DNA of 64,000 nucleotides from assembly GCF_013368755.1 (NCBI RefSeq), contig NC_049561.1, forward strand, positions 6,944,001 through 7,008,000. The letters are read 5' to 3'. Source of the stretch: Talaromyces rugulosus (lineage: Eukaryota; Ascomycota; Eurotiomycetes; Eurotiales; Trichocomaceae). A program made the position numbers and the translations under genes. This document shows positions 15,306-33,071 of the stretch, piece by piece. The notes below the pieces were generated by a model that saw only the letters and a list, made by a program, of their open reading frames with translations, had not been told where the DNA came from and made no database searches. Numbering within the stretch: position 1 is the stretch's first letter; each line of letters begins with the position of its first letter.

Positions 15306-16916
15306 TTGAAGAGAGGACAAACAGCCATGTTCGGGTTCGATATAGATTTCGCTCGTCACCGGTGGGCAATCTTTTACTGCTCTGTTTCCGCCATCGGAGC
15401 TCTTGTTTTTGGATATGACAACACCTACTACAGCGGTATCCTGGGGATGCAACAGTTCAAGAACGATTTTGGCGACCATTATGTTAACGGTGAAAAGGCA
15501 TTGGCCACCCAATTTACGTCGGTCACCACCTCGAGCATCTACATTGGTGATATGCTGGGCGCGTTGATATCAGGTCCTTTGAACGACCGCTTTGGCCGCA
15601 AAACGGTCCTATGGATTGCGTCGTTTTTCGTCTTAGCTGGGGGAATTACACAGGTTGCAGACACCAGTTACGAGGCTGTCATTATTGTCGGACGCATCTT
15701 GATTGGTCTAGGTGTCGGAAATTTCACAGTTACTTCTCTTCTCTAGTCAGTCACCCACTTTTTAATTCTGTTGTTTGACGAAAAGAATATTGACAATGTC
15801 AGTATGGGCGAAGTCGCACCTATCGAGATCAGAAGTCCGGCACTGTACATGTATCAGTTCCTTCAATCTTGTTCCCAGCTCGTTGCGTCTGGCGTGACCC
15901 AAGGTACCAACTCAATAAACTCGACACTTTCATATAAACTTCCTATGGGTGGTCTTGTTATATTACCTTTAGTTATGTTTATCATGCTCCCCTTCATTCC
16001 TGAAAGCCCAACATGGTATGTCTCTCGCGGGAAAAGAGACGAGGCGGAGAAGTCCCTTCGAAAAATCCACCAAAATGACACATCTTATGACCCATCAGCC
16101 GACTTGGCACTGCTCGAGCAAGCCAGAGAGTATGAAGAGGAGCAATTACGCGCATCGTCGTGGAAATCGCTCTTACTCGATTCGGTGGAACGGAAGAAAC
16201 TCGTTTGGGCCGCCGGTGGCATGTATGCCCAGCAGATTTGTGGGATTATTTTCTTCTACAATTACGGCGTCGTTTTTGCCGAAGCACTAGGTGTCTCTCA
16301 GCCCTTTACCATAACATTGATCACGATGATCTTGCAGATTTTCGCCGTCGGTGCCTGTGTACTTACAGCCAATAAACTCAGCAGGAGGTCAAATCTTTTG
16401 GTGAGCACAGGAATGATCTTCCTTGGCTTTATCGTGATTGGAGGCATTGGGACACAAAAAGAGCTATCAACGGCGTCCAAGTACGTTGTTGTCGTTTTCT
16501 CATATGTCGTCATTTGTGCGTACAATTTCGGACAAGGTCCTCTCTCCTACGCGGTGACACGAGAGCTTTCTGTCGGCGTTAACCAGAACAAAATCATTTC
16601 TGTCTCGGTGGTCTCGTTGTACTTCTTCCTCTGGCTCATCTCCTTTACCGCGCCATATCTTTACGATAACGCGGGGCTTGGTCCAATGGTGGGGTTTGTC
16701 TACGCCGGAACGACGCTGACGTCTCTTGCTTGGGTCTGGTTTTGTGTCGGGGAAACACAAGGCCGGACGCAAATTGAGATCTCGCTGTTTTTCACCAACC
16801 ACATCCCGGCACGCAAGTGGAAAACGCATGTCTTTCCTGAATTTCAGGCACTGAATAAGGAAAAGAACCAGTTTGAAGGAGAAAAACCGGATGTTCAGCA
16901 CATGGAACAGACTTGA
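15306..16916 (+). CDS. MFS sugar porter (sugar/H+ symporter family)
   Basis: Exons 15306-15745 and 15803-16916 give 517 aa, the usual length for a 12-helix sugar porter. Signatures seen are FGYDNTYYSGILGMQQF in helix 1, the D(R)FGRK loop (NDRFGRKTVLWIA), GRILIGLGVGNFTV, the PESPTWYVSRGKRDEA motif after helix 6, and a C-terminal GETQGRT in place of the usual PETKGRS. It should act in the plasma membrane, taking up a mono- or disaccharide with protons; the substrate cannot be told. The intron donor is GTCAGT, slightly off consensus, but the join restores the conserved YMGEVAPIEIRS block. A second ATG seven codons in is an alternative start. Confidence 0.85.
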
Positions 16917-19992: not shown

Positions 19993-21713
19993 CTAATATA
20001 CATAACGAAAGTTGGGATTTTCGAGATCTGTGAGATCCTCAAATGCCAAATCATGGGATATTTCTCTAGACTGCTGGTTCTTGGTCCGATTCCTACGCAC
20101 AAGAATGACTCTTGTCACGAGAACTAGGCAAACATAAACGGCGTATATGACAATATGTGCCAAAAAGCCATGTAGATACCTGGGGGCGTCAGAATTTTGG
20201 AAGATTTGCGGCGCAATCAGATTGCCAACAGCCCAGCCGATGAAGAGCATGGTCATGGTGAAGCCCTTTTTGGTTTGTCCGGCAATATTACGTGTGATCA
20301 GTGAAATTATCATGTTGCCCTCGGCGAGAAAAAATTGTGTGCAGTAAAAGGCGATAAGCATGCCCCCTGCGTTGGAGGCGGAGGGCGTGACCACGAGGAT
20401 GACAATAGTGCCAACAATGGCTGGCACAGACCACAGCTATTAATTAAGTTAGTTTGTTCTATTTACATCTAGACTCATGCCTACAAGCCTGAATATTATC
20501 CACTTACAATCATAACAAAGCATGTTTGTCCGAATCTCTCGGACGCCCATGCGGACCCTACCATCACTGCAATCGTCCATGCTCCTTGGGCGATGTTGAG
20601 GAGATCCGTCTGCAGCATCGAGAACCCGAATTGTTGAATAATGAGGTTAGAAAATACCCCAAGACCGCCGATTACCAGGTTAGCGACAGCAATGAGCAGG
20701 ACACAGCACCACACAAATGGATCTTTGATGGATTCAATAACCTGGTATTTCTTATAATTTTTGTTCTCAATACCGGTCTCATTGTGGCGGACGCGTTCAA
20801 TCATCAAGGCTTTATCTTCCTCGCTGAAGCACTTGGCCGACATAGGACTGTCCGGCAGAAAGATACCAATGCAGACGGACCAGACGCAGGTTGCGACACC
20901 TAGAACTACATATAGGAGCTGCCAGTTTTTGATCGGTCCATTAGTGAAATGGGAGACACCAAAGGATAAAAGTCCTCCGACCTTAAGTTTGTCAGAAAAA
21001 GGTTTCGTCTTTTCTATGCTAACCAGCAAAAGACATGTGGCATACCATTAATTGCACTCCATACATGCAGTACCAAATCGAATTCAAGAGAGACTGCTCC
21101 TCTCTTCTATACCACATTGTAGTCCTAGGCAAGAGTCAATAAAAGCTTCTTCCAAATGAGAGAGTAATAACAAACAGTAGCATCATGGCCGGTTGAACGC
21201 AACTTTCGAAAAACCCCAACAGAAATCGGACCATCATCAGGGATGCAAACCGGGTTGAAGCGGCCGAGCATGTCACAACGGCTCCCCATATAAAGACGTT
21301 GACCGCAAGAGTCTTCGCCACGGGAAACTTTTGAAGGAGAACATTTTGAGGATATTCACCGACTAGGATGCCAATATATAGAATGGTTCCCAACCATGAA
21401 TACTACAAGAAAATATGTTCAGTAAGCTGTGAAAGGAAGCGTGTTCCAGTGGGAAGGACGATTATCTTACTTGTTGTCCCACAAGGTGTGCGTCTTTCTT
21501 AATTCCCATAATGGAAGCATAATTGAGGATCCCCTTGTCCAGGGATTGGAAGAAGTAAGTGATCACCTGGAAAACAAGGATACGACGACTAATTTTCCAG
21601 AAGAGTTTTCTATCCGTGGATGCATCAATTACAATTCCTTGGTTGGTCGCGTAAGCATTTTCCTTTTCCGTCGCTTCGAGATGGATAGTCGCCAGGTTAT
21701 TTTTCGAGGCCAT
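19993..21713 (-). CDS. MFS permease, anion:cation symporter (Dal5/allantoate) family
   Basis: Five exons (21471-21713, 21176-21402, 21046-21124, 20508-20981, 19993-20436) give 488 aa. The layout fits the ACS family: cytosolic N-terminus, a first helix ISRRILVFQVITYFFQSLDKGILNYAS, GILVGEYPQNVLLQKFPVAK, RFLLGFFESCVQPAM, the long central loop after LPDSP..AKCFSEEDKALMIERVR, and 12 predicted helices. ACS permeases carry organic anions such as allantoate, nicotinate, galactonate or uronates. Sitting beside a polysaccharide lyase and a GH88 hydrolase, it is the obvious importer of the acidic sugar products; that substrate is inferred. All introns have GT-AG ends and the reading frame is intact. Confidence 0.88.
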
Positions 21714-22359
21714 GGTGTAATGAAACAGAGAAATTTGTTAAAATGATCATAATTCGCGATATTCGTAGAGAGTATTTGTAGCCCTAACCATAGCTACCAC
21801 ACGGAGAATCCCCTAATAAGGATCTATTCGACTCGACCATGGTCGCCGGAGAAAGGGCCGGCGATTCGTCCGTGCGAGCCATTTCACACGAAATGTTCCC
21901 GAGCCTAAACATTGAAGCTTTGTTGCAGTCCGTGGTATAGTCCGCGCAATCAATAGTGGCACGGTAATGAAGGGTCCGAATTAGAGCCATCGATATTAGG
22001 ACGACAAAAATGCTAGATATGTTGACGGGATTGTACAAAAACGAAGGAAGGTGATATACTACTCGAATATATTTATATTGAAGACATCTGACAGAAAAAC
22101 ATTACATTCGGTAGTTTCAACATCTGTATAGTACCTCGGTGTTTGTAAATACATCAATTTTACCAGTTTCTGATCAAGTGAAAATTACATTAATCTTAAA
22201 GTCGGCGATAAAAACTCTGAAAGAGCTGGTACTGGGAATTACAATTCAGATTTCAGACCATCAAGTAATAAACCAAAACAGCGCATTACCCTTGTACACT
22301 CTAGAAATTGAAACCAATTAAATCGCCTAAAGTATACATTCGGAATGATGGAATGCTGA
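21714..22359. other. Promoter region of the MFS permease
   Basis: About 645 bp upstream of the minus-strand permease, and also the 3' flank of the lyase gene. Contains AT-rich stretches around 22040-22330. No gene seen. Confidence 0.5.
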
Positions 22360-23627
22360 CTAGGAAATCCGATATAGAAGCGTACCAAACCCGAGGCCAT
22401 CAAAGCCACCGGAAGTAGAGCCATAGTTACCACCGCCGCCTTCAACACCATCAGTGGACTTGGTGTTAATGAAATCCCGATAAGTATCTGTCCATGAAGA
22501 GTTCAGGCCGTTCAATTGACCGTAATGTGCTGACAGTAACTCAAATCCTGGGCGGATGTCCCCCCGAGAATTATTGGAAATAACAGTCTGGTTGCCCTGG
22601 TAGCTATCGTAGGCTGTGTACGGCACGTCATAGCCGACGTTATACTTTGAAACGTACTCGGCCCTATGGGGGCTTAGTTAGTCAAAGATCTCTCGGAGAT
22701 AAGAAAGAATAATCAAGCAGATTTCAGTACTCACGCGTTCAATATTTCATTTCCGTAAGTGGAAAACAGGTCGTTTCCTTGGTTGTATGCTTGCTGGGCA
22801 ATGACCCCCAATAGCATTATATCCAGTGTAGCATGGCCCTGGTCACGTCCAGCTTCCTGGCCTTGTGTTAATAATTTACCGGAGCCATCTTCGGTGTAGT
22901 TGGCAATCGCAAATACGGGCAAAGCGCCATTTGACGGTCCCGTGAGCATGTACCGAACTGCATAATCATACATGGTCTGGTTATCGGTGAAGATACCAAT
23001 TGCCATCAATGAAGCCAGATTGCATTGGTCCCAGTTGGCATAATAGTGATAGTCGTTTTGACCATTGTGGTTTTCCAGAAACAGTGTGTTCATAGAGGCA
23101 AAGACATTTGTCAACATCGTAGCAGTCGCAGTTTTGTTGCTATTATCCCATTTCGAGTAATCCCTCATGAGCTCGGCTGCATTGGCCATCTGGTATCCAT
23201 ACAGTCCTGAGGCCAGGAACTTATCGCTCGTGCCACTGATAGCCGTCAGAGTCGCCGCCCAGGAGCTCAAGATGTTGATAGAAGCCTCGGCGTAGACGGT
23301 ATCGTTGGAGATCTTCCAGCGCACTGCCAGCTGGTAGGCGGCTGCGGCATCTTCAAATAGATGTTGATAATTTTCTGCGTCTACCCCGTTGTAACCACGG
23401 TACACAGTCTTTTGTGGCTTGGGCTGATAAGACGATTGTGCGTAAGAGCTCGCGGTTAATAGACCCCAAGTCGTGTTCCATGGCTTATCCCCATTTGCCA
23501 CGTGGGTATTGATTCGTGCAAAATCTTCTGTAGTATGAAGGGCCCCAGGATGAGTAAAGGCTGCTACGGCTGAAATGAAAAAAAGGAAAGAAATTATGGA
23601 AGACATATTCATCCGCAGAGACTTCAT
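22360..23627 (-). CDS. Secreted alginate-lyase-fold polysaccharide lyase
   Basis: Exons 22735-23627 and 22360-22663 give 398 aa. An N-terminal signal peptide (about residues 1-22, hydrophobic core SIISFLFFISAVAA) is followed by FTHPGALHTTEDFARI. The body matches the Alginate_lyase Pfam-type alpha/alpha toroid: the GDKPWNTTWGLL block, YQLAVRWKISNDTVYAEAS, MANAAELMRDY, HNGQNDYHYYANWDQCNL (likely active-site region with Asn/His/Tyr), GREAGRDQGH-like QEAGRDQGHATLDIM, and the end FDGLGFGTLLY. Such enzymes cleave uronic-acid polymers by beta-elimination and leave an unsaturated sugar at the new end. Alginate, glucuronan or a similar polymer could be the substrate; family numbering (PL5- or PL38-like) cannot be settled by eye. 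ATGs at 23612 and 23606 are possible alternative starts. Confidence 0.85.
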
Positions 23628-24340
23628 ATACTTGAATGGTTCGATTGGCATAAAATGTAAGCAAATAAATGTACTGCGAGTATCAATAATGCAATTGCGC
23701 CAAATAAAGTGATCTTGGGGACTTGCATTTTCGCCGACTATGCGGAACATTTATAGTTATCTTTCAATTTCACTGTAAAGCTATCTCGCTAAATTACGTG
23801 CAATATATTTAACCGAAAAGGTTGGGCTGACGCGGTCTATAGTAGTTTAATTAGAGATCGACGTTGCGCTATGCGTCAGATTGACAATAACAATTTCTGT
23901 CGTACCAAAGCGTGTGAGAACGAACCTTTTTTTTTTTTTTTTTTGGCGTTATGTCAATAAATATCCACCTGTAACCCTGGATAATGAAAAAGCCCTCCTG
24001 TATAACCCTTTCAACCCCATGGAATGCCCCGGAGGGGGTGGTGCTAGGGAAATGCCCACTACTTTGCCCGGCTGTGTGCAATTTGGCTGAACCATGCCAT
24101 ACCATGCATTGAATTCCGGTAGACAGCGTAAGGAAAATTTCCGGTACCTTTTCCGAGAGCGGATCGCGAGCCCTAAGTAATAAGCTGCGACGACGTCGAG
24201 ATAGATATTGTTTTCTCTAAATACGTGGAATTGGGTCTATTTATCTATTTGCCAACACCTCGGTTGTGAAACGCCAAAATTTAAGCCTAGTAATAGTTTC
24301 AGACGCTATGAATGTGAGTCAAATCTCGTTGCCCGGATAG
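23628..24340. promoter_or_regulatory. Divergent promoter between lyase and GH88 genes
   Basis: About 700 bp between the lyase (minus) and the GH88 gene (plus). It includes a poly-T run at about 23926-23944. Two close copies of TTCCGGTA lie at 24114-24121 and 24139-24146, 25 bp apart, followed by CCGAGAGCGG. CGG/CCG triplets of this kind are what Zn2Cys6 regulators usually bind, so this is a candidate control site for both genes. Binding is inferred. Confidence 0.35.
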
Positions 24341-25866
24341 CAAGTAATACAAGCTGAGATATGGTCAAAGGAACCGCCTCAAAAGAAAATAAGGGCTGAA
24401 CCAGAAAATACATCCTTGGAAAAAATTCCTCAGCTTGTCATCGATAGTCTCTATTCAGAGTCAGTGGCTGCGCGACTGTGGAATGTGGCTTGCAGGGCAC
24501 TGGGAGAGGTAATTTGCTCCAATATACCGATTATTGTTGCTGACAGCAATCGCAGAGCGACCCGCCTACATTTTATCCTGAGTATACTGGCAAGGATGGT
24601 GCAACTTACGTATATCGGCACCTAAGCTTTTGGACTTCTGGTTTTTTTCCGGGCTCACTATACCTGTTGCTTGAGCGTCGGAAAAGGTATGGTCATAATG
24701 GCACGCAGCATTCGTATCCAAATTTACTGCAGCTCCACCATCTGTGTCAGTGGTGGTCCATAAACCTATACCAAAATGCAAGCGTAAAGTCTACTCACGA
24801 TCTGGGCTTTATGATTGCACCTTGGGCAACAAAAGCCTGGGAGCTCTACAAGGACGAACAAGCATTCAGCAGTCTTGTCCTTGCAGCTCATTCTCTGGCG
24901 AGTCGGTTCTGCCCAAAGGTCCAATCTATTCGCAGCTGGGATACTTGTAAAACTGAAAAGTACGCTTTCCTCGACACCTCGACGGACTTCCTTGTCATAA
25001 TCGACAACATGATAAATCTCGATATGCTCTTTTGGGTAGCTAAGCAGACTGGTAACCATAATCTTTATGATATTGCAGTAGCGCATGCCCGGACTACCCA
25101 AAAACAGCATATACGACCTGACAAAACCACGTTTCATGTCGTAAACTTCGATCCTGAGAAAGGCTATCCCAAAAAGAAATTTACAAACCAAGGCTACAGT
25201 GATTATAGTTGCTGGGCACGAGGCCAAGCATGGGGAATACTAGGATTTGCGCAAACCTTTCATTGGACCAAGGACAATTCTTTTTTACAAACGTCTCAAG
25301 ATCTCGCAGACCTTTTTATCGAACGTCTACCTGCGGATGGTGTCCCGTACTGGGATTTGGACGCTCCCATCCCGCTTGAATCTCCCCGCGATACCTCAGC
25401 AGCCATGATCGCTGCCTGCGGTATGCTATTGATATTCAAAGCTCTCATGGCCAAAGGAAGGGATAATGAGGCGATGAAATATGTCAGAAGTGCAATGCGT
25501 ATTGCTCGTGGGACATGTGAAAAGTTCATGAACCCTCCTACACTCAGGTTTACTGTCTCCCCACCTGGGCGGACCATTCAGGTGTACGAAGATGGACTTG
25601 CTTCTGAGTACCAGGAGAAGTTGGAACCTGGGTTGCTTACCCTCGATCATGGGATGGATGCTGCTGGCTTATTGTCGATTAAAAAAAATGGCGTAGTGCC
25701 TAAGGAAACACATGCCTCAGAAACAATACTTACTGGGGCTACTATAAACAATTACGAGTTTGCGCCTCGTAGATGGGCTAATCATGGGTTAGTCTATGCG
25801 GACTACTACTTTATGCTTCTGGGTAATATGTTGCTTGAACTTGGACTGGCCGATACAGGCCAATAA
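24341..25866 (+). CDS. GH88 unsaturated glucuronyl/uronyl hydrolase, 5' end unresolved
   Basis: Coding is clear from about 24370 to 24508, and after a 47-bp intron (24509-24555) from 24556 to 25866. It has GH88 hallmarks: RHLSFWTSGFFPGSLYLLLE, HDLGFMIAPW (first key Asp), IIDNMINLDMLFWVA (second key Asp), GYSDYSCWARGQAWGILG, SPRDTSAAMIAACGML and ADYYFMLLGNM. GH88 enzymes hydrate the unsaturated uronic acid left by lyases and so release it; there is no signal peptide, so it acts inside the cell. The 5' end is a problem. The coding frame is open back to a TAG at 24338-24340 but contains no ATG. The nearest ATG (24361) is in another frame. Either a tiny upstream exon or a start-proximal frameshift must be assumed; the start coordinate given is only the limit of the open frame. 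Confidence 0.82.
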
Positions 25867-25968
25867 AATTTCTGACTCGATAAAATTGGTGTTACACAAA
25901 AGATAACCGCACAAAAGGGCGGTTATCAAATCCATGATCAGTGTTTTAGTTGACAGTAGATACATATA

Positions 25969-28291
25969 CTATTGTGAGGCCGAGTACCAAAATTGTGAGA
26001 CGGGCAGTGTTTCTACTGGTCCGGTGCCATAGAAAGGTTGCTCCTGCTCTTTTTCAAGTAACACTGGATCTAGTATATTCGACTCGGTCAAAGTCTGGTA
26101 TTGGAGCTGCAAGGATACAGGGAGAGGAGGGTAGGCGAGGCTAAGTGAGTTACTCAACGAGTCGGTTGGGGATAATCCGCTATAAGTTAATCCTCCGTGG
26201 CCACCATCATGTTGAATTTGGTATAGAAAGTTAGGGCTAACGGCATTTTCTTGTCGATTTAAAATTTCCCGTGGACAATCAATGGATTTCCATGTCTCTG
26301 CGTTGCTATTATGTTCTCCAGAATTAACACCCGATTGAGAGTCTGAGTAGACCGTTTGCTGGATGTCGAGGCTACCACGGGCAGATGCGTGTTTCCTAGC
26401 ATTGACCAGTCGTTTTGCAAATACAGATGCTAGATTTTCACGATCTAGGGTGTGAGGGCCACTCCACCGGCGAGATATCTCCCACAGGTTGGAAACGATT
26501 GTATCGAGTTGGTCGGGGATAGGAACTCTGGTGTATCTGGAATGGGCGAGCAGCACGCGTCCTGCAATGAATAAACAAAAAGAAAACTGCGGATTGGTGA
26601 GAATTGGCGAGTGGTGCAAAAAGTGATGACCAGTAGTTGCGATTTCGGTTGCGGCCTCAATGCATGTGTCCATGGAGACGTTTGAAGGAAGTCTAACCGG
26701 ACTATTCTTCCAATGTGCCGGAGGGTAGGCGATGCTCTGATGCAGCAATATCACAGCCGTGTTGTGTGTGATGTGCGCAAGGGTGAGGTTTGGATCAACC
26801 ACCCCATCATCATTGAGTACTGATGCGGTTCGCCACTTGGGAGGCAGGAATAGTTTCCACTGAACGAGCCGCAGATCAAGCTCTTTGAATCTCATCAACC
26901 AGATCTGAGCATTTTGCGCATCCTGAATGTCTAAAGCATGGTGAACGAAGAAGTTAATAATGAGCGTAAGAGACTCTGTGGCTTCGATGCAGTATGCGAA
27001 TCCTCCAACCGCGTCTTGCTCCGAGTTATCTTTCATGTCCACAAGGGTCGCATTATTACTCCCCGGGAAACAGCTCTTGTCAGTTATGCCAAAAAATGGA
27101 GCGAGCACTTCATTCTCCTTTTCCCATAGAGCACCTTCACATGGGAGGCGACGTCGGACATCCGCACTGGTGAGACTGAGGTTCCATCCGGTGGAAACGC
27201 AACAAAATCGGTCCATCAAAAATACGGCCCAGAAGAGTCTTCGTCGCTCCTCAGCCTGCCACCAAGTCTTCGTGGGTTGCAAGAAAACCATACGCCTGAT
27301 GAGATATTCACCTTTTCCCGTCGCTCTATTCTCTTGGAGCTCTTCGACACTAAGCTGGAGCTGTTCCACTGTCCTGGTCATGCTCCCTACAATCGACCAT
27401 GCCGATGGACCTCGACCACTACCTATCTGTCTTTTGGTAAGAACTCAGTACTCATTACGGCATTTTCCTTCTACATACTGTATCAAAAGCGACGATCACT
27501 AAAGCCTGCAGGTTCTCGACTGAGAACGACTCCATGCTGTTGAGTATCACCTTCTGACGACTAGCAGCGGCCATCTGGACCCTTGCTTCATAGCTGTCGA
27601 CATCCGCACAATCAACCAAGCGAGTACAAGTCGCCACAATGGCATGCAAGATTTGAGTAGCACTCTCCCAACCCTCAGGTGTTTGAATCTGTTGGCGGAA
27701 TTTTTTTACATGTAAAATTGGAATCCAGTGGTGCACGTTGGCGAAGTAAAACTCGACCAGCTCATTCATTAATTCCTGAGGTGGAAGATCATGTTCACTC
27801 AATGCGTAGGTCGACGGTGTGGATTTCGATTGTGGATTGGGTTTTCGACGTTTAATTGGGTATGCATCTTGCTGAGAGCTTGCTTCGCCATCTTGTTCAC
27901 CATAATGCCCTTGTAGGGGAGGAGACTCTTCGTCTTCTGGTGTCATTTGTAGAAATAAATCCTTTACCCGCTGACGATACTGGTCAAGGCTCGAGGTATT
28001 TGCACGACATTCTGCAGACGAGGGGTTCATAGAGTTCCACATCTTTTGCCATAGGAAGCCTTGGCCGATGAACATGCTCTCCAGTGTCTCGACACGGTGT
28101 TGCAATTGCTCAACAGCGCCAGCCCGCAGACCCGGTTTCAGACGGCCGTCGTCGTAGAGACAGTCCACATTGAAGCGCACGCACTGCGCGCATGGCTGTT
28201 CGCGATCGCATTTCGCCTTTTTTCGTCGACAGGACTGGCATGCTGGGATTTTATCCTTGCCATTTTCCGACTGATTTGATTCAGTTGCCAT
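25969..28291 (-). CDS. Zn2Cys6 transcription factor with fungal_trans domain
   Basis: Exons 27479-28291 and 25969-27426 (52-bp intron) give 756 aa. The zinc cluster spans residues about 18-44 with six cysteines (CQSCRRKKAKCDRE, then CAQCVRFNVDC), followed by a linker and a coiled coil (VEQLQHRVETLESM). The central Fungal_trans domain includes ELVEFYFANVHHWIPILH and IGSGRGPSAWSIVGSM, then EERRRLFWAVFLMDRF. Such regulators bind CGG-type sites in DNA, often in sugar catabolism. It ends 103 bp from the GH88 stop, tail to tail, and is the natural pathway-specific regulator of the lyase, GH88 and permease genes. That role is inferred from position. Confidence 0.88.
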
Positions 28292-28527
28292 TGAGGGCGT
28301 CCAGCTGCAAGTGAAAGCTCAATGGAATCGAGCTTTTCATTCCAGCTCATGAGTACCTCTCTGCAGTGAGGCTTGCTTCTCATTTGCGGGGAAGGTCGAC
28401 ACCAGCGCCGAATCACTCATGAATAGTTACGGGCCAAATGCCGGAGAATCCCCGGCTTCCCCGCACTTATGTAGATATTAATTGAATAGGGGTGAACACT
28501 ATTTGAAGTAATCGACCAATTCCCATG

Positions 28528-29217: not shown

Positions 29218-30513
29218 CTACTTTGAGTTGTCATGGCCTCTGTGGCTTTCGTCACCAGCATCCATCTCATGTGCCACCACTCCCAGGTCTGTGGCACTCA
29301 TCTCATACTGAGGCACCGTCCCGATAAATTCATACCGAGCTGTATCCCCGGAAAGTTCAGCGGGAACTGCACTCGCACGGTAATACATGTCCGAAGGCTC
29401 AGTCAATTGCGGGGCTTGAGAAGGAGAAAGTTGTTTCTTAGCCCTCCGCCGATACCAAAACCATCCCAATCCTGCTGCGATAAAGACTACCACACACGGG
29501 ACGACGATTGCGGTGGCAATTACTGTTGTTTTGTGATTATCACTTCCTGAAGATGTGCCTGTTGTAGTTGGTAGTGAAGTTGGTAGTGAAGTTGACGATA
29601 ATGACGACGGCGATGGTGGTAGTGAAGAAGTGGCGGGGAGGTCGGTCGCTTGAAAATTGAGTTGGATCATAGTTGCAAGCATAGAAAGGGTTGTAACAGT
29701 AGATGTTAATGTCACGAGTGATGAGATGAGTGTTCCAGTACTCGAAAACGTGGTAAATGTGGGGAGAGTGAACTGCGTTATTGACGCTGAAGCACTATTC
29801 GTGGCATTTACGCAGGTAACCAGTGACTGAGTTGTCGTGGGTAGTACTTTTTGGCACCACTGACTAGAAACAAGGGTTTCACATTGGTATCCTCTAATCA
29901 TTTTTGTACCAGTTAGACTAATCAAAGCCACTCTCCCCCAGCTCGTGCTGTGGGGTGGAAAAGGATAAAGGGGGAGAAAGAAAGCAAGCAAGTTCTACCT
30001 TGGACAACATCCTACCACTGTTTCATCAGCAGTTGCAGGGTAAACAAAGTCGAAACTTTGGAAAGGAGACAAGACAGATTTGATTCCATTAGCCCCCGCT
30101 TGTGCCGCACAGGCTGTTGTATATCCAGCAGGACATGCGATACCAGGGGAGTAGTAGCCTGTATATTGATAGCTCGTGGTTATAATCATCGAAGGGCCGG
30201 TTAACTGTCCGACGATGGTGGATTTTTCCACTGGGGGTAGACAGTTGTCATCCTGGGTGTAAGTAATATCCCCACTGACAGTTCCACAAGCCTGACCTAT
30301 AACGGGATCATAGATTCCAGCAGTGTCATATGCCCAATACGCCTGACTGCACTGAGCGGGTGCAGTGAACGTCGTAGTTAATGGACCTAGAAGGAATGTT
30401 GGAGTTGATGCGGCGGTGATTATTGTTCGTGAAGTTGTAGGAATTGACGTAGTTCTTGCTGAGTGTGTTGTAGAGGACATGGGGACATCCGCCATAGTTG
30501 TCGTGCCAGACAT
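29218..30513 (-). CDS. Mucin-like single-pass membrane protein
   Basis: Exons 29999-30513 and 29218-29893 (105-bp intron) give 396 aa. The N-terminus is Thr/Ser-rich (MSGTTTMADVPMSSTTHSA). A cysteine-containing region follows, ending in VVGCCPRGYQCET, a pattern seen in many fungal cell-surface proteins. After a long Ser/Thr/Pro stretch comes one membrane helix (TTVIATAIVVPCVVVFIAAGLGWFW) with a YRRRAKK stop-transfer, then a cytosolic tail. This layout (Ser/Thr-rich exterior, one helix, short tail) is like fungal wall-stress sensors and related surface proteins, but no WSC domain is seen. An upstream in-frame ATG at 30609 would add 32 residues. Function unknown. Confidence 0.7.
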
Positions 30514-31375
30514 TCTCTCATTATTTCTCTTTTCTCCCTTTAAATTCTGCGATCTTTCTCGTCTAATGATTGCTGCTCTTTTTGAAGATGGCAGTAGCAC
30601 ACTTGTCAATTTTTGACGCCCCCAGGTGGCCGTCTCTGCCGGCCTACGGTCTTGATTTTGGCCGAGTTGTATTCGAGGACTTTTGGCGAACGGCTCCGAA
30701 GGGAACGTCAGACTTTTATAACCACCACACCAAAAAGGAGATTGCGTTATCCGCTTGACAGGGATACTGCATCACATGATATGTAACCTACGGGGGTGTC
30801 AAAGCTAGTCCAGAGGTAGTTAGTATGATCGAGGGATGTTTCTCGTATATTTTCCTGTGAACGAGTGGTACTGTACTATTCTACTTTCTGCATAGTGTAT
30901 TATAGCCGTCATTTGTGGTGCGAGGTTGCAAAGCAATTGATCAAGCCTAGTAAATAAACTAATACTAAAATAAATAACATTTGAAACCAAAATATTGAAC
31001 TTCTAATAGCAGAGTAAGGACCTCTTTTGTGTAGTACACATGTAACCTTTGCTATGATTGACAATTAAATAAGGAAGTAATTGGCCAATTCCCATTTCAA
31101 TTCCCTCCCACGAACTGGGTATGAGAAACCCATATCAAAAATAAAATAAAATCATTCTTGCTATAGGTAGTTTACAGCAATTATTTAGTGCTTTTATCAA
31201 CTATCTTATCGGCGTTCCTGCAGGAACTGCCGAGCTGGCCCAATCGGAGCAACCCCGCATGGCTATTGTTTCCTCCCCGGCGCATCTCCGATCCAACATT
31301 GAACTTTTTCCTCTCCTGTTCGGTTCGTGGTGATTGATATTGTTGCCGTGCTGTCTCCCTCTTTGCACGCTCAAA
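30514..31375. other. Divergent promoter of mucin-like and sugar-porter genes
   Basis: About 860 bp. The AT-rich middle (30950-31160) includes a partial dispersed-repeat match at 31073-31095 (GAAGTAATTGGCCAATTCCCAT type). No gene seen. Confidence 0.5.
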
Positions 31376-33071
31376 ATGGGCCTCTCCCCCTCTGTCTTTC
31401 GTATCTTGGTAAGAGCCTTGACGCCTGCAATTGAGAACGCACTGTTGATCCCTTCCTCCAGGTCGTCGGCTTCGTTGCGCTCGGCAGCACAACCTATGGC
31501 TACAGCTCCAGCATCATCGCAACCACCCTCGGCCAGCCGTCTTTTCTGTCCTATTTCGAGCTCGACTCCCGATCCAATGCGACCCAGCTAGAAGGCGCCA
31601 TCAATGGCCTGTTTCAGGCTGGTGGTCTCGTCGGATGCCTGTCATGCATTGGCACGGCAGATTGGCTTGGTCGCAAACAGTCCATTCTGATCGCGTCGCT
31701 GGTGACCATCGTTGGTGGAGCGCTGCAGGCTGGTAGCGTACATATTGCCATGTATCTGGTCTTCCGCTTCGTCACCGGGATTGGTGTTGGTGAATATCTG
31801 TTTTCTTCTCTTCGAGCTATGGGCTCAAGCTGATCGTCTTTGCCTCCAGGCGCTCTCGTCGCGTTGGTGCCGTTATACCAGTCGGAAATTTCGCCGCCAA
31901 AGATCCGTGGTTTTCTCGTTGGAATACACGGCGTGATGCTCTGTATCGGATATGCTCTCGCTAGCTGGGTCGGCCTAGGATTTTATTTTGTCAACGCCTC
32001 AGGATCGCAGTGGCGTCTTCCTCTGGCTATACAGTGTCTCCCGCCGCTCATTCTAGCGTCCGGAATTTTTATGCTTCCTGAATCGCCGCGGTGGCTAATC
32101 GACAACGATCGTACCGAGGATGCACTGAAGGCCTTTGAATCCATTCATGCCGAATCTGACCAGTCCATCGCGAATGATCACGGTGCTGTTGTGGCCGAGT
32201 TCAACCTTCTCCAAGCTTTGATCGTACATGAGAGAGAAGAGAAGCACACCTTTTCCGATATGTTCAGATATCCCGCCATGCGTAAGAGATGCTTGATTGG
32301 GTTTTTCGTTCTCTTCGCTTGCCAAGGAACCGCCACTTTGGTTATCAATAGTAAGCTCGTCTTTGATGTTTTAACCAAGGTCTATTCTAATCTAGCTTGC
32401 AGATTATGGCCCTTCTCTTTACGCATCTCTGGGCTTTGAACCCGTCTCTCAACTGGTTATCCAAGGCGGCTGGATCACAGTGTGCCCCATAGGTAACCTG
32501 GTCAACTCACTCATCGTCGACAAAGTTGGCCGCACCCGTTTGCTGATGGCAGGCTTTGTCGGGACTGTTTCCGCGCTTGTCGGAGAGTGCATCACTTTGA
32601 GCATCTATCAAAGATCGGGCTCTCGCTCTGCAGCTAGCGCCGCCGTGTTTTTCCTCTTCTTCCATATTGCCTGTTTTTCCGTCACCTGCGATGCGACTTC
32701 ATACATATACGCGTCGGAGATATTTCCGACACCGGTGCGTGCCAAGGGGCTTGCTATTTCCGTTTCAGGGCTTTTCGTCGCTACAATTATATTTTTGCAG
32801 TGTGCGCCAACGGCTTTTGCGGAGATTGGGTGGAAGTATTACACTGTATTCATTTCGTGCACGGTGGTGAGCTTTTTTATTGTTTGGTTTTGTTGCCCCG
32901 AGGTATGTATTATTATTTTCCTTATCCTTTTATTCGCTTGATTAACATGGATTGTAGACTAGTCAACGTTCTCTTGAGAGTATCCCCGAGCTGTTTGGGG
33001 ACTCTGTCGAACCGGCAAACATCAAACATGTCGTCGAGGTCGATGAAGTTTCTGCTTCTGGCAAGAAATAG
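31376..33071 (+). CDS. MFS sugar porter
   Basis: Five exons (31376-31408, 31462-31789, 31850-32350, 32403-32902, 32958-33071) give 491 aa. Signatures: YGYSSSIIATTLGQPSF in helix 1, TADWLGRKQSILIA, RFVTGIGVGALVALVPLYQSE, FMLPESPRWLIDNDRTEDA, VDKVGRTRL, and SEIFPTPVRAKGLAIS. The first exon is only 33 nt. The C-terminus has PETSQRSLESIPELFGD where the usual PETKG(L/R)SLEEI motif lies. A plasma-membrane sugar/H+ symporter is expected; substrate unknown. It lies next to a short-chain dehydrogenase and a regulator, so it may belong to a small catabolic set. Confidence 0.87.

What the first reader, a model, noticed from the sequence alone, without database searches (positions are those of the whole stretch)
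19993..28291. Four-gene uronan utilisation cluster in a fungus
An ACS-family permease, a secreted alginate-lyase-fold lyase, an intracellular GH88 hydrolase and a Zn2Cys6 regulator lie side by side with no other genes between. From family knowledge, lyase products carry an unsaturated uronic end that GH88 removes, and ACS permeases carry organic anions. This is the logic of a bacterial polysaccharide utilisation locus built from fungal parts. The polymer (alginate, glucuronan, another uronan) is not known.
Basis: partly seen in the sequence, partly recalled or inferred. Interest (0 to 1): 0.75.

Follow-up and report, generated by a model that had tools for sequence, protein, structure and literature searches.

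The report
Fungal uronic-acid polymer digestion cluster
A mould carries a small gene set (secreted cutter, importer, internal finisher and its own switch) that looks built to eat an acidic sugar polymer, and the cutter belongs to an untested enzyme group shared by fungi and soil bacteria.

Summary
In Talaromyces rugulosus (GH88 identical to TRUGW13939_02379) four intact genes lie side by side: ACS-type permease, secreted PF05426 lyase, intracellular GH88, Zn2Cys6 regulator. GH88 keeps both catalytic aspartates.

GH88 and regulator share a contig in 34 of 42 named species listed for both (about 2 expected). The same genome has a second cluster: PL7 lyase (closest PDB entry a glucuronan lyase), regulator paralog, the one other locus that the GH88 protein finds, a sugar porter and DUF2264. 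The permease's nearest paralog sits beside a GH105-type gene. The lyase is a looser partner: same contig as GH88 in 7 of 17 species.

Corrections: the lyase is not shown to be an alginate lyase or PL38. Its profiles find no solved lyase, while a true PL38 control does. The best 80 bacterial relatives are 42-51% identical; 13 lie near, and one is fused to, a GH28/GH49-like enzyme. Substrate unproven: glucuronan-like, or a uronate-containing heteropolymer.

The parts
19993..21713 (-). ACS-type (2.A.1.14-like) MFS permease, 488 aa, exons 21713-21471, 21402-21176, 21124-21046, 20981-20508, 20436-19993 (likeliest of several possible splice sets)
   Evidence: gene model; MFS_1 E 1.4e-34; TIGR00893 E 7.5e-57; nearest of the 48 other own-genome matches listed for its 183-aa exon lies beside a GH105-type gene on C5
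22360..23627 (-). Secreted PF05426 lyase, 398 aa, exons 23627-22735 and 22663-22360
   Evidence: model pLDDT 90.8 with PL5/PL17/PL38-type fold; only PF05426 match found in the genome
23628..24307 (.). Shared divergent promoter region of lyase and GH88 (680 bp)
   Evidence: gene models; function inferred
24308..25866 (+). Intracellular GH88 unsaturated glucuronyl hydrolase, 484 aa, exons 24308-24313, 24371-24508, 24556-25866; catalytic Asp codons start at 24799 and 25003
   Evidence: identical to public protein P0121; PDB matches and catalytic Asp alignment; motif conservation and Asp positions
25969..28291 (-). Zn2Cys6 regulator, 756 aa, exons 28291-27479 and 27426-25969
   Evidence: a paralog lies next to the other GH88 locus
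21847..21872 (.). Two overlapping CGG-N8-CCG sites upstream of the permease, candidate operator
   Evidence: suggestive only, many spacings were looked at
24142..24155 (.). CGG-N8-CCG site in the lyase/GH88 promoter, candidate operator
   Evidence: suggestive only
28430..28443 (.). CGG-N8-CCG site upstream of the regulator, candidate operator
   Evidence: suggestive only

Best explanation
It is a dedicated catabolic gene cluster for a uronic-acid-containing polysaccharide, most likely a glucuronan-like or other GlcA-containing polymer. The secreted lyase cuts the polymer outside the cell by beta-elimination and leaves fragments with a 4,5-unsaturated uronic end (inferred from fold and family). 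The ACS-type permease imports these anionic fragments (inferred). GH88 inside the cell removes the unsaturated end residue (inferred from close similarity to characterised unsaturated glucuronyl hydrolases with both catalytic aspartates kept). The Zn2Cys6 protein next to GH88 switches the set on when substrate is present (inferred from conserved GH88-regulator linkage and from a paralogous cluster of the same design). GH88 plus regulator is the old, stable core; the depolymerase and the transporter are exchangeable: PF05426 lyase and ACS permease here, PL7 lyase and sugar porter on C4.
For: Four intact adjacent genes. GH88 similarity E 7.6e-44 to unsaturated glucuronyl hydrolases with both catalytic Asp aligned. 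GH88 and regulator on the same contig in 34 of 42 named species, about 2.0 expected; restricted to GH88 contigs under 1 Mb, 26 of 31 against 0.27. Lyase-GH88-regulator with consecutive tags in P. malachiteum. Second own-genome cluster on C4: PL7 closest to PDB 7nde 'Glucuronan lyase' E 6.6e-70, regulator paralog, the one other locus found with the GH88 protein, sugar porter, DUF2264 whose solved relatives include beta-D-glucuronic acid dehydratase. Nearest permease paralog beside a GH105-type PF07470 gene; chance about 0.001. In bacteria the same lyase family lies within about 10 kb of GH88 in 4 of 80 loci.
Against: No expression or enzyme data. Lyase linkage is loose: same contig as GH88 in 7 of 17 species and as the regulator in 8 of 21. 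The nearest relative, T. proteolyticus, shows lyase (86%) and regulator (85%) on one contig, but no T. proteolyticus GH88 among the 120 GH88 rows listed. The C4 regulator is the nearest paralog only when its exon matches are summed (284 bits); as a single match C2:6517473-6519155 scores more (197 bits). The lyase's catalytic pair is not conserved with PL38 in a weak profile alignment. No shared operator was established.
Confidence: 0.62

Rival explanations
1. The substrate is homopolymeric beta-1,4-glucuronan, and this cluster is a second glucuronan module beside the PL7 one on C4, with the PF05426 enzyme acting as another glucuronan lyase.
For: Paralogous C4 cluster with a PL7 closest to a glucuronan lyase; a further PL7 and a PL20 in the genome; [quoted passage not shown] A review says that the lyase system of Trichoderma parareesei degrades glucuronan fully (PMC10512326, passage); that this system includes PL7 and PL20 enzymes is recalled.
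Against: The lyase is not detectably PL38, the PF05426 family in which glucuronan lyases are known. Some bacterial relatives sit with a GH49/GH28-like hydrolase and with GH97, which a homopolymer of beta-GlcA would not need.
Confidence: 0.3
2. The substrate is a heteropolysaccharide with uronic acid and alpha-glucosidic or alpha-galacturonosidic links (for example a bacterial or fungal exopolysaccharide), cut by the lyase together with a GH49/GH28-like hydrolase in organisms that have one.
Against: No GH28-like relative was found in T. rugulosus, in a search without a positive control; 9 of the 13 loci are Streptomyces, so they are not independent.
Confidence: 0.3
3. It is a pectin side-chain (rhamnogalacturonan) module, as fungal GH88 is filed in the surveys seen.
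For: GH88 is listed under pectin in PMC4522099 and PMC11122143 (passages); weak NCBIfam match of the GH28-like protein to rhamnogalacturonidase, 19.8 bits against a cut-off of 500.
Against: In A. niger the GH88 gene An01g01340 is near zero and not induced by gaaX deletion or gaaR overexpression (TPM 0.163 reference, 0.219 delta-gaaX, 0.212 OEgaaR; PMC5847190 passages); orthology to the window gene was not checked, and PMC5701360 lists it as AraR-regulated from literature (passage). None of the four window genes is a pectinase.
Confidence: 0.15
4. The four genes are neighbours by chance.
For: Lyase and GH88 lie on different contigs in 10 of 17 species; no operator shown.
Against: GH88-regulator linkage 34 of 42; paralogous cluster and permease/GH105 pair; consecutive tags in Penicillium.
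Confidence: 0.06

Closest known systems
Trichoderma parareesei glucuronan lyase system (Pilgaard 2022; not held; seen only as a citation and through passages of a review)
   Same: Ascomycete set of uronan-degrading lyases; T. rugulosus also holds PL7 and PL20 genes
   Different: In what was seen it is described as a set of lyases, not as a gene cluster with GH88, permease and regulator; the window lyase is not detectably PL38
Bacterial alginate or GAG polysaccharide utilisation loci (recalled)
   Same: Lyase plus unsaturated uronyl hydrolase plus importer plus regulator side by side
   Different: MFS permease and Zn2Cys6 regulator instead of SusC/SusD-type uptake and bacterial regulators; genes with introns
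PL38 lyases (BoPL38, Aly38A, CUL-I, TpPL38A, RiPL38; PMC13027841, passage)
   Same: Pfam PF05426 and the alginate-lyase helical toroid fold
   Different: No sequence match of either profile to BoPL38, while a true PL38 control reaches 2.3e-41; hhalign probability 71.8 only
Unsaturated glucuronyl hydrolases, GH88 (2zzr, 1vd5)
   Same: E 7.6e-44 and 4.4e-40, both catalytic Asp kept
   Different: Fungal branch; below the PF07470 cut-off
Fungal CAZyme gene clusters in Trichoderma (PMC10512326, passage)
   Same: Linked CAZyme genes in a fungal genome
   Different: Here with a regulator gene conserved beside one enzyme

Membership tests
GH88 (unsaturated glucuronyl hydrolase) | Sequence similarity to characterised members | tested here: met
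   E 7.6e-44 to 2zzr, 4.4e-40 to 1vd5
GH88 (unsaturated glucuronyl hydrolase) | Two catalytic aspartates | tested here: met
   HDLGF and IIDN align with the positions that read Asn in variant rows of the S. agalactiae enzyme (the catalytic role is recalled); motifs found in 114 and 120 of the 120 listed homologs
GH88 (unsaturated glucuronyl hydrolase) | Score above the Pfam PF07470 gathering cut-off (a threshold of Pfam, not a defining feature of GH88) | tested here: not met
   19.0 bits against 26.6
GH88 (unsaturated glucuronyl hydrolase) | Releases unsaturated uronic acid | not testable with these tools
   needs an assay
PF05426 / alginate-lyase-fold superfamily | Pfam match and fold | tested here: met
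PL38 | Sequence similarity to characterised PL38 | tested here: not met
   A1 and A2 profiles find no lyase in the PDB at E up to 1 and 10; control PL38 L098 finds BoPL38 (8bdq) at 2.3e-41 and 3nfv at 5.9e-69; pairwise 25% over 152 aa E 0.001; hhalign 71.8. TpPL38A itself was not available to compare, and fungal genomes do get PL38 calls (PMC9281073, passage), so the fungal side of PL38 was not tested
ACS permease family (2.A.1.14) | Best match to an ACS model over the full length | tested here: inconclusive
   TIGR00893 (2A0114) E 7.5e-57, 193 bits against a cut-off of 395; best of the 10 models listed
Zn2Cys6 regulators | Zn_clus and Fungal_trans domains | tested here: met
   PF00172 E 4.5e-10, PF04082 E 2.2e-14 on the two ORFs
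Polysaccharide utilisation cluster | Contiguity of complementary genes | tested here: met
Polysaccharide utilisation cluster | Conserved linkage in relatives | tested here: inconclusive
   GH88-regulator 34 of 42; lyase-GH88 7 of 17; lyase-regulator 8 of 21; permease not tested
Polysaccharide utilisation cluster | Co-regulation by substrate | not testable with these tools
   needs RNA-seq

The most novel reading that the evidence does not exclude
The lyase is a member of an uncharacterised polysaccharide lyase family, with Asn-Trp-Asp where PL5/PL38 have the Asn-His pair, shared between fungi and soil bacteria by an old inter-kingdom transfer. It works with a GH49/GH28-like hydrolase or with GH88 on an as yet unnamed uronate-containing polymer, and fungi run it from a GH88-plus-regulator core that swaps depolymerases.
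Probability: 0.35. Interest if true: 0.68.

Novelty: new variant of a known kind. Interest (0 to 1): 0.52.

Why it matters
Fungal GH88 is filed under pectin in the surveys seen. Here it is tied to its own regulator across several classes of Ascomycota and to two different uronan-type lyases in one genome, which makes its real substrate and regulon directly testable. If the lyase is a new family, it opens an unstudied polymer sink shared by soil fungi and bacteria, and gives enzymes for acidic polysaccharides.

Tried and rejected
PL38 assignment was the first idea and was dropped: profiles of 50 fungal and fungal-like and of 35 fungal plus bacterial lyases found no solved lyase, and a bacterial PL38 used as control did. 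A shared operator was looked for by listing CGG/CCG pairs in nine stretches. CGG-N8-CCG occurs 17 times in the window against 9.9 expected; 4 shuffles of 100 reached that. Four of the 17 lie in the three cluster promoters; Poisson 0.002 before any correction for the many spacings looked at, and another site (19255) lies 3' of the permease, two more inside the lyase and GH88 coding stretches, so it stays a suggestion. PL8 (PF02278) was not found in the genome, but nothing rang in the controls either. The other PL7 and the PL20 gene have no regulator, GH88 or permease relative within the fetched 18 kb and 10 kb around them. The DUF2264, PL7 and permease (one exon) queries found nothing in the 80 bacterial loci; GH105 and sugar porter queries found one locus each. 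First clustering of bacterial neighbours gave little, because many called ORFs in GC-rich loci are spurious. Fungal synteny could not be read from DNA, as no fungal collection is held; contig lengths and locus tags were used instead. Limits of that count: only 120 of 1532, 7926 and 773 hits were listed; rows without a species name were dropped (among them three contig lengths are shared by the lyase and GH88 lists, of 39 and 32 lengths); two rows of one species may come from different strains; 'same contig' is not adjacency for chromosome-size contigs. Ten literature searches found no report of this cluster: (open-licence library only; I saw listings and abstract starts, and passages of nine papers). 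Pilgaard 2022 is not held.
Full report
What is there. The window lies at 6,944,001-7,008,000 of contig C1 (C1 is 7,273,914 bases long). The GH88 gene encodes exactly the public protein TRUGW13939_02379 of Talaromyces rugulosus, whose contig has that same length, so the organism is T. rugulosus, a Eurotiales mould. Four intact genes lie between 19993 and 28291: permease (-), lyase (-), GH88 (+), regulator (-). Lyase and GH88 are divergent and share 680 bp of promoter; GH88 and regulator are convergent, 102 bp apart. To the left is a BTB-domain gene; to the right an unscanned ORF pair, 29218-30771.

Is the neighbourhood meaningful? Contig lengths of the 120 listed homologs for each of three genes were compared. 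GH88 and regulator are on one contig in 34 of 42 named species listed for both (2.0 expected if placed at random in 35 Mb; for GH88 contigs under 1 Mb, 26 of 31 against 0.27). Their locus tags differ by one in P. lagena, P. malachiteum, P. herquei, P. taxi, P. longicatenatum and A. hancockii, by three in Neonectria ditissima and Fusarium decemcellulare, and by twenty in A. nanangensis. Lyase and GH88 share a contig in 7 of 17 species (1.7 expected), lyase and regulator in 8 of 21 (2.0 expected). Lyase and GH88 tags are adjacent in P. malachiteum and P. waksmanii, 2 apart in P. pulvis and 6 in P. samsonianum, and far apart in P. longicatenatum, P. canescens, N. ditissima and F. decemcellulare. 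So GH88 plus regulator is the stable core and the lyase a frequent but not fixed partner. In T. proteolyticus lyase and regulator share a contig, but no GH88 of that species was among the 120 rows.

Two internal replicates. On C4 the same genome has PL7 (+), a regulator paralog (+), the one other locus that the GH88 protein finds (-), a sugar porter (-) and DUF2264 (+) between 2,928,579 and 2,938,880. Summed over its exon matches this regulator is the nearest paralog of the window's (284 bits); as a single match C2:6517473-6519155 scores more (197 bits, 30% identity). The PL7 is closest to PDB 7nde, named glucuronan lyase, E 6.6e-70. DUF2264 matches beta-D-glucuronic acid dehydratase at E 2e-17 and a beta-galactosidase at 7.8e-17. 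On C5 the nearest match to the permease's 183-aa exon, of 48 others listed, belongs to a gene that lies divergently beside a GH105-type PF07470 gene. The chance that the best permease paralog falls within 5 kb of one of four other PF07470/GH88 loci is about 0.001; for the regulator and the one other GH88 locus about 0.0003, if the summed score is taken. PF07470 itself also matches at C1:5054292 and C2:6321408, not studied.

Is the lyase PL38? A Bacteroides PF05426 protein that finds BoPL38 at 2.3e-41 and 3nfv at 5.9e-69 served as control. The window family's profiles find neither. Pairwise similarity is 25% over 152 residues and hhalign gives 71.8% probability. Read by eye in that weak alignment, the Asn-His of PL38 corresponds to Asn198-Trp199 here and a Tyr to His265. 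Asn198, Trp199, Arg261 and His265 are present in 50 of 50 rows of A1, Asp200 in 47 of 50; in A2 all five are in 35 of 35. This is a hint of another catalytic set, not proof. No name in the 120 lyase rows gives a PL number, while many GH88 rows are named by family; names are cut short and most annotation is automatic. Against this reading: fungal genomes do receive PL38 calls (Sporothrix, PMC9281073, passage), and TpPL38A of Trichoderma was not available for comparison.

Substrate. For glucuronan: the paralogous cluster. For a mixed polymer: the GH49/GH28-like gene, GH97 (5 of 80) and a GH127 relative (3 of 80, the query loci counted) near bacterial relatives. Against pectin: A. niger GH88 An01g01340 stays near zero under gaaR overexpression (PMC5847190, passages), though it is listed as AraR-regulated from literature in PMC5701360 (passage); whether it is the ortholog of the window gene was not checked. 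I commit to a GlcA-containing polymer and leave the exact one open.

Verdict. A real fungal uronan-type utilisation cluster, not reported in the searches named under Tried and rejected, with a conserved GH88-regulator core and a lyase of a group that looks uncharacterised.

Noticed in passing
G000:C4:2928579-2938880 (L010, L011): Second, paralogous cluster in the same genome: PL7 closest to a glucuronan lyase, Zn2Cys6 regulator, GH88, sugar porter, DUF2264.
   Followed up: partly
G000:C5, L013:6579-9968: ACS permease paralog divergent from a GH105-type PF07470 gene, a possible import-and-cleave pair.
   Followed up: partly
L044:6197-9577: Single bacterial polypeptide (Paraflavisolibacter caeni) with GH28-like, PF05426 lyase and DUF1349 parts.
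   Followed up: partly
L079:4973-6499 and 12 other loci: GH28-like family whose predicted structure matches GH49 isopullulanase over its full length, near the lyase in Streptomyces, Massilia and Bacteroidota.
   Followed up: partly
P0284 (Aspergillus bertholletiae): Public protein that joins a GH28-like enzyme to the cluster's regulator; probably two neighbouring genes merged by annotation.
   Followed up: partly
window 22360-23627 and 25969-28291: No T. rugulosus protein for the lyase or the regulator was among the 120 rows listed for each, although the GH88 one was; the public gene models may be missing or different.
   Followed up: no
window 15747-16916 and 31435-32941: Two sugar-porter-like genes flank the cluster at some distance; the first matches Sugar_tr, the second was not scanned.
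   Followed up: no
Outside T. proteolyticus, GH88 and regulator are closest to Aspergillus (70%, 66%) and the lyase to Penicillium (up to 82%), while T. islandicus GH88 is only 59%: the cluster may be a mosaic or transferred within Eurotiales. No tree was made for GH88 or regulator.
   Followed up: no
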